DNA from: an uncultured Bacteroidota bacterium
GTDB lineage: Bacteria > Bacteroidota > Bacteroidia > Flavobacteriales > Flavobacteriaceae
Assembly (NCBI GenBank): GCA_902622595.1
Contig: CACNQM010000003.1
Coordinates: forward strand, 124,001 to 188,000
DNA: 64,000 bases
Reading direction: 5' to 3'
Position 1 is the stretch's first letter. Every line of letters begins with the position of its first letter. Below the pieces are notes generated by a model that was not told the origin of the DNA, searched no databases, and saw nothing but the letters and a program-made list of their open reading frames with translations. Below, in pieces: positions 13,977 through 19,258 of this stretch. The position numbers and the translations under genes were made by a program.

Positions 13977-14420
13977 CTATTTAAAATATTTCCAAGGGAC
14001 TATTAGCATTCCAAAACACTCTCCGCCATCTTTATTTATATTTTTATGATGAATTTTATGTGCTCTTCTTACACCTCTAGCATACTTATTGTCAATATTT
14101 CTTAAAAATTTAAATCTTTGGTGAATAAAAACATCATGAACGATAAAATAAGCTAATCCGTAAAGCCCTATTCCTATTGCAATTGGTAGTCCAAGCCAAA
14201 AGCCTTGTCCCCACATAATAACAAAACTTACACTTAAAAAAGCATAGAAAAAAAAGAAAAGATCATTTCTCTCAAACCATGATTTATGATCTTTTTTGTG
14301 ATGATCTTTATGAAGAATCCAAAGTGGTCCGTGCATAATATACTTATGGTTAAACCAAGCTGTAAACTCGGTTACAATAAATGTTATTATGAGAGTAAAA
14401 ATCCAAATAATTATATCCAT
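13977..14420 (-). CDS. crtZ: Beta-carotene hydroxylase (fatty acid hydroxylase family)
   Basis: FNHKYIMHGPLWILHKDHHKKD, YFIVHDVFIHQRF, RAHKIHHK His boxes. Confidence 0.92.
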   Translation of the reverse strand: MDIIIWIFTLIITFIVTEFTAWFNHKYIMHGPLWILHKDHHKKDHKSWFERNDLFFFFYAFLSVSFVIMWGQGFWLGLPIAIGIGLYGLAYFIVHDVFIHQRFKFLRNIDNKYARGVRRAHKIHHKNINKDGGECFGMLIVPWKYFK

Positions 14421-15259
14421 TGAATAAGATTTAATTGATATTTAACATATGATCTCGCAATTACAACAAACTTTTGGAAGTTATGAATTCTAACTCTTTT
14501 TTTAACAATATTTTCAGATGAAATTCTTTTTAACTTTTTTAATAGTTTAAAATAATATCTGTAAGCAATGTATACTGCAAACTTTGAATTTTTTGGAAGT
14601 CTTACAATACCTTTAATGGCATTTTTAAAATCTTCTTCAATTTCAGATATTATCTCTCTTTTTGACTCTTCATTAAAATTATTCATATCTACATTTGGAA
14701 AATATACCCTATTTAAAATTTTGGAATCATCTTTCAAGTCTCTTAAAAAATTTACTTTTTGAAACGCTGAACCTAATGATATCGCAAAAGGACTAAGTTC
14801 ATTATACTTTTTCTCAGATCCGTTAACAAATACTTTTAGACACATTAATCCCACTACATCAGCTGAACCATATATATACTTTTTATACTCTTCAACCGAA
14901 TCATATTCTTTTTTTTCTAAATCCATTTTCATACTATCTAAAAAAGAACTAATAAGATTTTTAGGAATAGAGTATTTATTAACAGTAAACTGAAACGAAT
15001 TAAGAATTGGGTTTAGACTTATTTTATTATCTATACTTCTCCACAATTCCTTCTCAAACTCGCTAAGTAATTCTTTCTTTGGAAACTCATGAAATGTATC
15101 AACAATTTCATCAGCAAGTCTGACAAACCCATATATATTAAAAATATCTTGTCTAATAGATTTTGAAAGAAGATTACTTGAGAAATAAAATGATGTACTA
15201 TATCTTTTTATCACTAATTTACTAGAGTCACTTGATACCTTATCAAAAATTGATTTCAT
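14411..15259 (-). CDS. crtB: Phytoene/squalene synthase
   Basis: YGFVRLADEIVDTF, YIYGSADVVGLMCLKVF, FQKVNFLRDLKDD. Confidence 0.95.
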   Translation of the reverse strand: MKSIFDKVSSDSSKLVIKRYSTSFYFSSNLLSKSIRQDIFNIYGFVRLADEIVDTFHEFPKKELLSEFEKELWRSIDNKISLNPILNSFQFTVNKYSIPKNLISSFLDSMKMDLEKKEYDSVEEYKKYIYGSADVVGLMCLKVFVNGSEKKYNELSPFAISLGSAFQKVNFLRDLKDDSKILNRVYFPNVDMNNFNEESKREIISEIEEDFKNAIKGIVRLPKNSKFAVYIAYRYYFKLLKKLKRISSENIVKKRVRIHNFQKFVVIARSYVKYQLNLIQWI

Positions 15260-15294
15260 AATACAAAAATAACTAAAAAGAGTAAATCAATTCA

Positions 15295-15302
15295 TATCTT
15301 TG
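15295..15302 (+). promoter_or_regulatory. Putative -7 box (TATCTTTG), 4 nt upstream of ATG
   Basis: TAnnTTTG match. Confidence 0.45.
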
Positions 15303-15306
15303 ATTT

Positions 15307-16098
15307 ATGGAAAAAACTTTATTGTATCATTACACGTCACTTTCACACCTTATTGAAATTTTTAAAACAGGTAAATTACTTACTTCACAGACTGAAAAGA
15401 TGCTTAAAGTAAAAAAACCAGGTCTTTGGTTTACTACTAACTCTAAATGGGAATATTCAGCATTTAAAAGGTTCAATGATGGTAAAAAGGAATTTGATTT
15501 AAATACTCCTGAGGAATTTGAAAAATATATTGGTTGTGCAAGACTAGTGACCAACTTAAATTCTCTATTTGTAACTTTTGCTAAGTATAAGCATAAATCT
15601 AAGGTCAATCCTTTATTATGGGATAAAATGGCTGAGATTGGTAAATCAAAAGGAGCGAATCCAACTGAATGGTATGCAACATTCAGTCCAATGAGTATTA
15701 ATAACCTTGATATAGAAGTTTATGAGGGGGGTGAATGGTTTAAATTAAAAAAAGAAAATGGAGAATTTGACTCAGACCTTTTTAACAGGAGTCTTGAAAA
15801 AACTTTTGTTTTCAAGAAAGGAAAAGAGATGGAAGAAAAGATGATAAAAGAAGTCGAATTAAATAAAGAGAAAGATAATCTAAATATTGAAAAACCAATT
15901 GAGGAGAAAGTTGAGCCAGTGGTTGAGGAGAAAGCTGAGCCAGTGGTTGAGGAGAAAGCTGAGCCGGTGGTTGAGGAGAAAGTTAAGCCAGTAGTAGATG
16001 AGAAATCTGATGAATTGATTGAGGATAAAAAGAAATTAGAGACAGCAAAATCAAAAGGGATATTATCTAGAGTTAGGAATTTCATTAAAAGAAAATAA
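15307..16098 (+). CDS. Uncharacterised ART-like domain protein with acidic repeat tail and basic C-terminus
   Basis: LYHYTSLSHLIEIFKTGKLL...PGLWFTTNSKWEYSAF...GANPTEWYATFSPM...VYEGGEWFKL; VEPVVEEK repeats; RVRNFIKRK end. Confidence 0.6.
   Translation: MEKTLLYHYTSLSHLIEIFKTGKLLTSQTEKMLKVKKPGLWFTTNSKWEYSAFKRFNDGKKEFDLNTPEEFEKYIGCARLVTNLNSLFVTFAKYKHKSKVNPLLWDKMAEIGKSKGANPTEWYATFSPMSINNLDIEVYEGGEWFKLKKENGEFDSDLFNRSLEKTFVFKKGKEMEEKMIKEVELNKEKDNLNIEKPIEEKVEPVVEEKAEPVVEEKAEPVVEEKVKPVVDEKSDELIEDKKKLETAKSKGILSRVRNFIKRK
15910..16005 (+). repeat. In-frame 24-bp tandem repeat, 4 copies (last degenerate)
   Basis: GTTGAGCCAGTGGTTGAGGAGAAA-like unit at 15910, 15934, 15958, 15982, encoding (V/A)EPVVEEK. 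Confidence 0.95.
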
Positions 16099-16134
16099 AA
16101 AAGTACTCTAATTAAAATTCACTTCAGTTAACAT

Positions 16135-17424
16135 TTATTCACCAGGCCTTGGAATTTTATAATTACCATAAATATCTGGCTTAATTGGTGGTTCTGAATT
16201 CCATGTTAAATTATTTGGAACCAAATTATCATTTATCTTTAAAACATCATTTAATTTTATAACCTTTCCTGTGTAGGTTGCCATTCTACCCATTATTGAA
16301 GCTAAATTAGATCTTACTGCATAATCTGAATTATCAATTTGATCACCTTGTCGAATTGATTTAAATAATAAATCATGCTCAATTTGATATGGTGACTTAT
16401 CATCAATAGGATCGTATTCATATATTATGTTGCCTTTATGATCAGTTATATTTACTATTCCTGAATCATCAAGATTAACAATTCCTTTAGTGCCTATTAA
16501 TTTCTCATTTACTTCGTAGAATGTGCCAGGTTGATGTCTACACTGACTATGAATAGTTGCGCCATTTTTATACTTAAATTCGACGTAATGATGATCAAAA
16601 ATATGACCATATTTTTTGCCTTTTCTTATTTCTCTGCCCCCCATTCCTTGAGCCGAAATAGGATAATCACCAATAAACCAATTTGCTACATCAATATTAT
16701 GGATGTGTTGTTCCACAATATGATCACCACAAAGCCAGTTAAAATAATACCAATTTCTCATTTGATATTCGAGTTCTGATTGATTTTTTTCTCTTTCCTT
16801 TACCCATACTCCACGCGAGTTCCATTTTACAATTCCAGAGGTTATCTTACCTACCATTCCCCTTTTTACCTGTTTAAACGTATTAATATAACTTGGCTGA
16901 TATCTTCTTTGTAGTCCAACTACAACATTTAATTTTTTTTTCTTAACTATTTTTGCTGATTCAATAAATCTTTTTATACCTGAGATATCTGTTGCTACTG
17001 GTTTTTCGACAAAAACATGTTTTGAAGAATTAACTGCATATTCAAAATGCTGAGGTCTAAACCCTGGTGGTGTAGCTAGTATAACTACATCTGCATTATC
17101 GATTGTTTTTTTATAACCGTCAAAACCGGTGAAACAATTTTCATTTTTAACTCGAATCTTTGAGGTTCCTTTAAACTCATTTTTTAAATTATTGAGACTA
17201 CTCTCAATTTTATCTTCAAAAACATCACACATAGAGATAAGCTCAATATTATCGTCAGCATTAAGAGCATTTATAACTGCACCAGTTCCTCTTCCTCCGC
17301 AACCAACAAGAGATAATTTAATTTTATCATTATAAATATTCTTTTTGGATTTAAGTGTGTATCCAGGTAAAATAAATGCTGAGGATAACAAAGATGAGAA
17401 TTTAATAAAATTTCTTCGTTTCAT
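16135..17424 (-). CDS. Gfo/Idh/MocA-family oxidoreductase, exported (Tat-like leader)
   Basis: MKRRNFIKFSSLLSSAF leader; LVGCGGRGTGAVINAL, VFVEKPVATD. Confidence 0.9.
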   Translation of the reverse strand: MKRRNFIKFSSLLSSAFILPGYTLKSKKNIYNDKIKLSLVGCGGRGTGAVINALNADDNIELISMCDVFEDKIESSLNNLKNEFKGTSKIRVKNENCFTGFDGYKKTIDNADVVILATPPGFRPQHFEYAVNSSKHVFVEKPVATDISGIKRFIESAKIVKKKKLNVVVGLQRRYQPSYINTFKQVKRGMVGKITSGIVKWNSRGVWVKEREKNQSELEYQMRNWYYFNWLCGDHIVEQHIHNIDVANWFIGDYPISAQGMGGREIRKGKKYGHIFDHHYVEFKYKNGATIHSQCRHQPGTFYEVNEKLIGTKGIVNLDDSGIVNITDHKGNIIYEYDPIDDKSPYQIEHDLLFKSIRQGDQIDNSDYAVRSNLASIMGRMATYTGKVIKLNDVLKINDNLVPNNLTWNSEPPIKPDIYGNYKIPRPGE

Positions 17425-17440
17425 AACCTAAATATATTAA

Positions 17441-18394
17441 TTATTTAATCCAATATGCTTCAATATCCTCAATATTAGGAGTATTGTAAGGTCTAACTAC
17501 TCTAAAACCAAGAAATTGGGCATTTGTATGCCACCATCTACTTTTTGGAAACTGTGGGTCTCTTCTCTTCCAGCTTTTCTCTGAAGGTATTCTTTTATAA
17601 CTTTGTAAATCTTCAGCACTATCCTTCCATGAACCACCTCTAACAACTCTAGGATATTCACTAGTAGGCCTATTGAAAGGGTTGTTGATTATAGTATCCT
17701 TTAAATTTAGATATGCATCTTCAATGTACTGATCAAGTGTCCACTCAGAAACATTTCCATGCATATCATGTAATCCAAATTTGTTAGGAAGCTTTTGTCC
17801 AACCCTTTGATATTTTCCATTACTATTTTTTTCATACCAAGCATACTTTGTTAATGAATCAATTGAATTTCCAAAATGATATAAACTATCTGAGCCAGCC
17901 CTAGCAGCATACTCCCATTCAGCTTCGGTTGGCAGCCTATAGTAATTTCCAGTCATTGCTGTCAACCACTCACAGAACTTTGAGGCAGTTAATTGAGTCA
18001 TAGAGATTGCGGGATATCCTTCGACACCCATACCAAAAGACATATCAACATACGGGGCAGTGGCACCCGAGACAGCATCTACATCGACATTTATCTCGTG
18101 TTTATAACTCTTTCTTACTTGAAGAGAGTCAATTTCTCTAGATAAAAAAAGATTAAATATATCCCATGTTATTTCATACTTTGCCATCCAAAATGGACTT
18201 ATTTTAATATTTTGAGATGAAGTTTCATGATCCCCTGAGTCATCTTTACCCATTTTAAATATACCGCCTTCAATTGCAATCATTTCTATATTATAATCAA
18301 TTTTAGAAATGAGCTGATTATAATCTTCAAAATTATCATCCTGAGCTTGTGTATAAAAACAGAGTAAAAAAATAATTACATAAAGATTCTTCAT
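17441..18394 (-). CDS. Formylglycine-generating-enzyme (SUMF1/PvdO) family protein, secreted
   Basis: GGIFKMGKDDSGDHE, YRLPTEAEWEYAARAG, LHDMHGNVSEWTLD, RVVRGGSWKD. Confidence 0.9.
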   Translation of the reverse strand: MKNLYVIIFLLCFYTQAQDDNFEDYNQLISKIDYNIEMIAIEGGIFKMGKDDSGDHETSSQNIKISPFWMAKYEITWDIFNLFLSREIDSLQVRKSYKHEINVDVDAVSGATAPYVDMSFGMGVEGYPAISMTQLTASKFCEWLTAMTGNYYRLPTEAEWEYAARAGSDSLYHFGNSIDSLTKYAWYEKNSNGKYQRVGQKLPNKFGLHDMHGNVSEWTLDQYIEDAYLNLKDTIINNPFNRPTSEYPRVVRGGSWKDSAEDLQSYKRIPSEKSWKRRDPQFPKSRWWHTNAQFLGFRVVRPYNTPNIEDIEAYWIK

Positions 18395-18483
18395 ATGTAA
18401 AGACTATATAAAATTAAAAAAACTTTTAATTATAAATTTAGATCAAAAAATAATTAAGTGATAATTTATTTGGAAGGAAAATG

Positions 18484-18567
18484 TGCCTACGACTGGACTC
18501 GAACCAGCACGAGAATAATCTCACTACCCCCTCAAGGTAGCGTGTATACCAATTTCACCACGTAGGC
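18484..18567 (-). tRNA. tRNA-Leu(GAG)
   Basis: Reverse complement GCCTACGTGGTGAAATTGG...CTACC-TTGAGGG-GGTAG...GGTTCGAGTCC...CGTAGGC; long variable arm. Confidence 0.93.
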
Positions 18568-18581
18568 TAAAAATAGGGTAG

Positions 18582-18654
18582 TGACCTGGCTGGGGCTCGA
18601 ACCCAGGACCCTCTCCTTAAAAGGGAGATGCTCTACCAACTGAGCTACCAGGTC
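18582..18654 (-). tRNA. tRNA-Lys(TTT)
   Basis: Reverse complement GACCTGGTAGCTCAGTTGGTAGAGC...TCTCC-CTTTTAA-GGAGA...GGTTCGAGCCC...CCAGGTC. Confidence 0.95.
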
Positions 18655-18711
18655 TGAAAAAGATGTCAAATATACATTGAAATATTGATTATTCAATGAT
18701 GTTTTTTATTA

Positions 18712-18719
18712 TAAATTTG
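18712..18719 (+). promoter_or_regulatory. Putative -7 box (TAAATTTG), 5 nt upstream of aroK ATG
   Basis: TAnnTTTG match. Confidence 0.5.
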
Positions 18720-18724
18720 TTAAT

Positions 18725-19258
18725 ATGAATAAAACTATTAAGACAATTTTTTTAACTGGTTACATGGGAGCAGGTAAGACTTTAATTGGTAAATCCTTAT
18801 CAAAAAAAATTAATTATAAGTTTTATGATTTGGATAGTTATATAGAGACTAAAGAGGGCAAAAAAGTTTCTGATATATTTAATCAAAAAAATGAAGTTTA
18901 TTTTAGAAAAATTGAGAATAAATATCTTGATCAGTTATCATCTAAAAACGAAAAAAAAATAATTTCAACTGGAGGAGGAACTCCCTGTTTTAAAAATAAT
19001 CTAAATTTAATTCAAGATACTCCTGATTCATTATCCATATATCTGAAAGCAAATGTTAATACATTAGTTGAAAGATTAAAAAATTCTATTACCAAACGAC
19101 CGCTAATTTTACATTTAAAAAATGATCAGGAATTAAGAGATTTCATAACAAAGCATTTATTTGAAAGAAGCTTCTACTATGAAAAATCAGATATTAAAAT
19201 CAAAACTGATGATTTAGAATTAAGTAACATTGTAAAGTTGATTAGTGAACTAGTTTAA
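18725..19258 (+). CDS. aroK: Shikimate kinase
   Basis: LTGYMGAGKTLIGKSL, FYDLDSYIE, ISTGGGTPC. Confidence 0.95.
   Translation: MNKTIKTIFLTGYMGAGKTLIGKSLSKKINYKFYDLDSYIETKEGKKVSDIFNQKNEVYFRKIENKYLDQLSSKNEKKIISTGGGTPCFKNNLNLIQDTPDSLSIYLKANVNTLVERLKNSITKRPLILHLKNDQELRDFITKHLFERSFYYEKSDIKIKTDDLELSNIVKLISELV

What the first reader, a model, noticed from the sequence alone, without database searches (positions are those of the whole stretch)
15307..16098. Candidate ADP-ribosyltransferase-like protein in chromosomal, non-phage context
N-terminal LYHYTSLSHLIEIFKTGKLL followed by PGLWFTTNSKWE resembles the H-[YF]-T start and following strand of small ART-fold enzymes (DarT/Tpt1-like), and GANPTEWYATFSPM...YEGGEW matches a recurring uncharacterised bacterial family I recognise only by pattern. 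The tail is a charged repeat ending in a basic RVRNFIKRK segment, so the enzyme-like head may be tethered. Best single-gene novelty candidate in the window.
Basis: inference. Interest (0 to 1): 0.6.

Follow-up and report, generated by a model that had tools for sequence, protein, structure and literature searches.

The report
Rare ART-fold protein beside crtB
A small protein that probably has the fold of NAD-using ADP-ribosyltransferases, from a family otherwise rare and found in phages, plasmids and anti-phage gene clusters, has become a fixed, strongly conserved gene next to a pigment gene in a whole genus of tiny marine bacteria, where it also carries a charged, repeat-built tail that may anchor it.

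Summary
The 263-aa ORF (15307-16098 +) is real: its 172-aa head evolves under strong purifying selection (pN/pS 0.085). It belongs to a family with no Pfam, NCBIfam or PADLOC model. AlphaFold2 models of the window head (pLDDT 81) and a distant Kordia homologue (pLDDT 86) share a fold, and Foldseek matches are mostly ADP-ribosyltransferase (ART) folds: DarT, PltA, pertussis S1, KptA, CC0527, TreX, Arr. Single matches are weak (best E 0.005, TM 0.35-0.5), so the ART fold is likely, not proven. H8/T10, W41 and E121 line up by motif with DarT's H13/T15, Y71 and E160; E121 is D or N in a few relatives. DarT and KptA models do not match; no antitoxin-like neighbour or macrodomain was found. Relatives are very rare and mobile: a phage, Vibrio plasmids, Kordia beside McrBC, Thiomargarita beside GmrSD/HEPN. 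Throughout the marine genus MED-G11 the gene is core, divergent from crtB across 44-49 bp, and only there has a tail: a charged 24-bp-repeat linker of variable length plus a conserved basic C-terminus (KSKGIFSxVKSxFKRK). Best reading: a domesticated, non-toxic, probably tethered ART-like enzyme. Substrate unknown; NAD+ use untested.

The parts
15307..15822 (+). Head domain (residues 1-172), predicted ART-like fold; invariant H8-Y9-T10, W41, A52, R79, P119, W122, W144; E121 conserved as E/D, N in the phage homologue
   Evidence: ORF; family alignment and column counts; AlphaFold2 pLDDT 81; Foldseek
15328..15336 (+). H-Y-T motif (residues 8-10) on predicted first strand; by motif equals H13/T15 of DarT, which bind the adenine-side ribose
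   Evidence: invariant in 15/15 rows; strand 5-10; DarT roles from PMC9967889; equivalence is inference
15418..15474 (+). PGLWFTTNSKWEYSAFKRF motif (residues 38-56); W41 on predicted second strand, candidate for the nicotinamide-stacking aromatic
   Evidence: W41 and A52 invariant, residue 48 always aromatic, E49 14/15, K54 K/R; strand 40-43; role inferred
15661..15687 (+). P-T-E-W-Y-A-T-F-S (residues 119-127); E121 is the candidate catalytic Glu just before a strand, followed by P..I..L.IEV much as in DarT
   Evidence: P119 and W122 invariant, E121 E in 12, D in 2, N in 1 of 15; strand 122-125; equivalence to DarT E160 inferred by motif
15823..16044 (+). Charged low-complexity linker (residues 173-246), present only in the MED-G11 genus, variable in length
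   Evidence: tail 56-123 aa including the C-terminus in ten complete congeners; absent from Kordia, Vibrio and phage homologues
15899..16010 (+). 24-bp in-frame tandem repeat (about 4.7 copies, 8-aa unit) inside the linker
   Evidence: Tandem Repeats Finder score 168; congener assemblies break across it and resume on another contig
16045..16095 (+). Conserved basic C-terminus (residues 247-263, AKSKGILSRVRNFIKRK), candidate anchor
   Evidence: alignment of ten congeners, consensus KSKGIFSxVKSxFKRK; hydrophobic moment 0.44-0.55, reached by 7-18% of shuffles; no convincing second copy in own genome
15260..15306 (.). 47-bp divergent intergenic region shared with crtB; TATCTTTG ends 4 bp before the ATG on the + strand and TATTTTTG lies close to the crtB start on the - strand
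   Evidence: TAAATCAATTCATATCTTTG-type block conserved in nearly all congeners; reading as near-leaderless Bacteroidota promoters is inference
14411..15259 (-). Neighbour: phytoene synthase-like gene (crtB), divergent; arrangement conserved in all congeners with enough flank
   Evidence: name from sequence reading, not from a profile search

Best explanation
The protein is a member of a rare, unnamed family with an ADP-ribosyltransferase-like fold, of the type that uses an H-(aromatic)-[E/D] pocket (closest in layout to the H-Y-[EDQ] clade and DarT). The ancestor of the MED-G11 genus gained it from the mobile/defence gene pool and made it a standing cellular gene beside crtB. It most likely binds NAD+ through H8/T10 and W41, cleaves it with the help of E121, and transfers ADP-ribose to a cellular target (protein, nucleic acid or small molecule, unknown). 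In this genus the head is followed by a long charged repeat linker and a basic end that probably ties it to the inner membrane face or to nucleic acid, so its substrate is probably local to that place. Shown: family, conservation, synteny, tail anatomy. Supported by models: ART-like fold. Inferred: acquisition route, NAD+ use, tether, substrate, any link to carotenoid synthesis.
For: Two models of distant members agree in fold and retrieve mostly ART structures: DarT E 0.005 prob 0.97, EcPltA, pertussis S1, KptA, CC0527; TreTu, TreX, cholera toxin A, pierisin, Arr. BFVD top hits are Bacillus phage G proteins, E 1e-5, prob 1, from a phage with at least 10 ARTs (PMC9503650). H8, T10, W41 invariant and E121 E/D in 14 of 15 rows, matching DarT H13/T15, Y71, E160 (PMC9967889) by motif. 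Core status and purifying selection; conserved divergent crtB arrangement. Defence or mobile context of relatives: Kordia 20 bp after mcrC with type I R upstream, Thiomargarita before GmrSD_N and HEPN, plasmids and a phage. No antitoxin-like conserved neighbour, no macrodomain in the assembly. Basic C-terminus conserved while the linker length varies.
Against: No Foldseek PDB match at E <= 0.001 and TM-scores are only 0.35-0.5; the Kordia model's matches are weaker (E 0.06 and above). Profile-profile comparison with DarT and KptA finds only the HYT..L..I..G stretch. The canonical Tyr, and DarT's R51, have no clear counterpart; the phage homologue has N at the Glu position. The amphipathic moment of the tail is not significant against shuffles. 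NAD+ binding is untested. The defence link rests on two contexts.
Confidence: 0.5

Rival explanations
1. ART fold without catalysis: the head is a non-enzymatic binder of NAD+, ADP-ribose or nucleotides, acting as a sensor or scaffold attached through the tail.
For: E121 is replaced by N in the phage homologue and by D in two others; the canonical second-motif Tyr is missing; ART-superfamily clades differ in their catalytic residues (PMC9503650).
Against: H8, T10, W41, R79 and an acidic residue at 121 are kept in nearly all members over very large distances, which suggests an active pocket.
Confidence: 0.22
2. A still-active anti-phage defence component (abortive NADase or nucleic-acid ART) that MED-G11 keeps in its core genome.
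For: Relatives lie beside McrBC with type I restriction (Kordia) and GmrSD/HEPN (Thiomargarita), and in a phage and plasmids.
Against: Defence genes are usually patchy, but this one is universal, syntenic and under the same selection as metabolic genes; no defence genes seen around it in the window; no PADLOC match.
Confidence: 0.12
3. A free-standing toxin of a toxin-antitoxin pair (DarT-like).
For: Best PDB fold match of the window head is DarT.
Against: No PF14487 match in the genome, no conserved partner gene beside it: crtB is divergent and the downstream gene differs between congeners; no macrodomain in the 86%-complete assembly.
Confidence: 0.04
4. Not an ART: a different small alpha/beta fold that Foldseek relates to ARTs by chance.
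For: No match below E 0.001 in the PDB, TM 0.35-0.5; some flavin reductase folds appear lower in the lists.
Against: Most of the better-scoring matches of two models are ARTs of several clades; the order of motif positions (H-x-T, aromatic strand, E before P..I.V) fits the ART core.
Confidence: 0.12

Closest known systems
DarT (PF14487, DNA thymidine ADP-ribosyltransferase)
   Same: Top PDB fold match; YH-x-T start, aromatic on the second strand, A/P-x-E-[FW] followed by P and I.V, by motif comparison with DarT loci
   Different: No Pfam match, no clear R51 counterpart, no DarG or macrodomain, extra tail, core gene instead of patchy toxin
KptA/Tpt1 (PF01885, RNA 2'-phosphotransferase)
   Same: LYH-x-T....I...G start and an S....TA motif after the second strand; weak fold match 9ld4
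   Different: No Pfam match, no N-terminal extra domain, second-motif His absent; profile match limited to 23 columns
CC0527 family (2o0q, 2jqn; small uncharacterised ART-like proteins)
   Same: Similar small size; fold match in both models, TM 0.35-0.45 by query and 0.43-0.56 by target
   Different: No sequence or Pfam match
Rhs-toxin ARTs TreX/TreTu and rifamycin Arr
   Same: Small ART domains found as fold matches; TreX TM 0.51-0.57
   Different: No delivery domain, immunity gene or secretion context seen here; no sequence match

Membership tests
ART superfamily (fold) | Split beta-sheet ART core | tested here: inconclusive
   Two AlphaFold2 models, matches mostly ART but best E 0.005 and TM 0.35-0.5
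ART superfamily (H-Y-[EDQ] clade) | His on first strand | tested here: met
   H8 (with T10) invariant in 15/15 rows, on predicted strand 5-10
ART superfamily (H-Y-[EDQ] clade) | Tyr (aromatic) of the second motif | tested here: inconclusive
   No conserved Tyr; W41 invariant and residue 48 always W/F/Y
ART superfamily (H-Y-[EDQ] clade) | E/D/Q at start of the later strand | tested here: inconclusive
   E121 is E in 12, D in 2, N in 1 of 15 rows; position relative to the fold judged by motif and predicted strand 122-125, not by superposition
ART superfamily | NAD+ binding and ADP-ribosyl transfer | not testable with these tools
   needs biochemistry
DarT (PF14487) | Match to the family model | tested here: not met
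   No Pfam hit for the protein up to E 10; no PF14487 match in own genome
DarT (PF14487) | Adjacent DarG macrodomain antitoxin | tested here: not met
   No macrodomain in the assembly, 85.7% complete; neighbours are not antitoxin-like
KptA/Tpt1 (PF01885) | Match to the family model | tested here: not met
The unnamed HYT / WFSTNxxWExTAxK / NPxEW family | Full-length homology of the head with shared invariant residues | tested here: met
   tblastn E 3e-9 to Vibrio plasmids over 87% of the head; 30-33% identity to Kordia, L031, L032 and Vibrio members

The most novel reading that the evidence does not exclude
A new ART clade with an H-W-[E/D] pocket, recruited from the defence/mobile gene pool into housekeeping in a streamlined marine genus, where it acts as a constitutive, tail-tethered ADP-ribosyltransferase tied by a shared divergent promoter to carotenoid (membrane pigment) synthesis.
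Probability: 0.15. Interest if true: 0.72.

Novelty: new variant of a known kind. Interest (0 to 1): 0.42.

Why it matters
It defines a protein family that none of the searched model libraries hold, and gives it a likely fold and candidate active site. The MED-G11 case would be an example of a conflict-system enzyme turned into a core cellular gene of very small marine genomes, and it makes one question testable: does a non-pathogenic bacterium use ADP-ribosylation at a fixed cell location as ordinary regulation?

Tried and rejected
Pfam, NCBIfam and PADLOC for the protein (Pfam and PADLOC also for several relatives): nothing. PHROG hits only to the first 28 residues or near noise. PDB sequence searches: one hit at E 0.89 (8akp, residues 122-175) that the family profile did not confirm. 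Family alignment A1 was too divergent for pattern scans. Viral contigs: A2 and the Vibrio protein found nothing, the phage protein found one 98% relative. Profile-profile against DarT and KptA: weak, N-terminal only; DarT against KptA is equally weak with the same small alignments, so the test has little power. Toxin-antitoxin reading rejected (no partner, no macrodomain). Contig breaks in the gene as a sign of DNA switching: rejected, since the missing C-terminal part starts another contig and the gap is the tandem repeat. Copies of the C-terminal motif elsewhere in the genome: none convincing; the better extra hit runs antisense through an AMP-ligase-like gene. Papers linking ARTs with carotenoid synthesis in flavobacteria: none found.

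Full report
Observation. The ORF at 15307-16098 (+, 263 aa) and all quoted motifs are present. It is a real gene: 18 of 24 congeneric genomes besides its own carry it with 74-97% identical heads. Their completeness values add up to 18.25, so the count is what universal presence would give. Head pN/pS against the window copy is 0.085 (median of 14), like crtB 0.104, crtZ 0.081 and surA 0.093.

Family. Pfam, NCBIfam and PADLOC have no model that matches. tblastn finds distant homologues on Vibrio, Photobacterium and Cupriavidus replicons and in Pseudomonas phage phiAH14b; genome scans add Kordia algicida, two further Bacteroidota assemblies, Vibrio hepatarius and Thiomargarita and one more Flavobacteriaceae genome. 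It is rare: 3 of 203 genera in the family-wide sample, one of them only a partial match with stop codons; 1 genome besides the window's own in a 393-genome phylum sample; none besides the centre in 370 genomes of the Vibrio class. Over 15 aligned rows H8, Y9, T10, I18, W41, A52, R79, P119, W122 and W144 never change; residue 48 is always aromatic; E49 is E (D once); E121 is E in 12, D in 2, N in 1.

Fold. AlphaFold2 gave pLDDT 81 and pTM 0.79 for the window head, and pLDDT 86 and pTM 0.79 for the Kordia protein, with the same order of elements. These lists are dominated by ARTs of different clades, although no match reaches E 0.001 and TM-scores are 0.35-0.5. In BFVD the five best hits are Bacillus phage G proteins (E 1e-5 to 8e-5); that phage is reported to encode at least 10 ARTs (PMC9503650), though I did not check that these five are among them.

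Active site, by motif. In Thermus DarT, H13/T15 contact the adenine-side ribose, Y71 stacks on nicotinamide, and R51 and E160 are needed for the reaction (PMC9967889). DarT loci from this phylum show YHIxH..., PFYF and QAEFL......P...V...V. The window protein has LYHYT, GLWF and TEWYATFSPMSINNLDIEV, so H8/T10, W41 and E121 are the natural equivalents. R51 has no clear counterpart. Profile-profile comparison found only the N-terminal stretch against DarT and KptA, but it found no more than that between DarT and KptA themselves with the same small alignments, so it neither supports nor excludes kinship.

Genus-specific form. In every congener locus with enough flank the gene starts 44-49 bp from crtB, divergently, with crtZ and surA-like genes beyond; the downstream side is variable before aroK (gene names from reading the sequences). 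The intergenic block TAAATCAATTCATATCTTTG is nearly invariant except in the most distant congener; TATCTTTG fits the Bacteroidota TAnnTTTG element (general knowledge) and would start transcription at or just before the ATG. The tail occurs only in this genus: a 24-bp in-frame tandem array, total tail length 56-123 aa, and a conserved end KSKGIFSxVKSxFKRK. The end is basic with hydrophobic positions spaced as in an amphipathic helix, but 7-18% of shuffles reach the same moment, so membrane binding is a suggestion only.

Context elsewhere. Kordia: 20 bp after an mcrC gene, with mcrB-like and type I restriction R genes upstream; Thiomargarita: before GmrSD_N and HEPN genes. Others sit on plasmids or in a phage early region. 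This points to a mobile, conflict-related pool from which MED-G11 took its copy before the genus diversified; the genus stem is long. The direction and source of transfer are inference.

Mechanism. Best supported: a non-toxic, constitutive ART-like enzyme held at one place by its tail. Steps shown: gene, family, selection, synteny, tail. Supported by models: fold. Inferred: NAD+ use, tether, substrate. Rivals are a catalytically silent NAD+/ADP-ribose binder, a resident defence enzyme, a toxin, or a non-ART fold; see the rival list.

Verdict. A new family-level variant of a known kind, in an unusual role. Interest is moderate because activity and substrate are unknown.

Noticed in passing
15899-16010: The 24-bp tandem array in the gene's tail breaks assemblies: in 8 of 20 congener loci the contig ends inside this gene, and in three genomes the C-terminal part starts another contig (G013:C7, G016:C8, G009:C1).
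   Followed up: yes
16099-18724: The interval between this gene and aroK differs between congeners: Gfo/Idh plus a formylglycine-enzyme-like gene here, a 576-aa coiled-coil-like protein in L045, a lipoprotein-like gene in L041, nothing in others; it looks like an insertion hotspot.
   Followed up: partly
18725-19258: The shikimate kinase-like gene is far less conserved in the genus (pN/pS 0.28, 67% aa identity) than its neighbours.
   Followed up: no
15260-15306: Both divergent starts have a TAnnTTTG-like element a few bases before the ATG, suggesting near-leaderless transcripts for crtB and this gene.
   Followed up: partly
L030:4559-6444: In Kordia algicida a homologue follows mcrC by 20 bp in a type I restriction/McrBC cluster; possibly an unrecognised accessory gene of a restriction locus.
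   Followed up: partly
L028:1501-1761: In genome G203 the family profile matches a stretch with two in-frame stop codons (E 2e-6), perhaps a decayed copy or a chance match.
   Followed up: no
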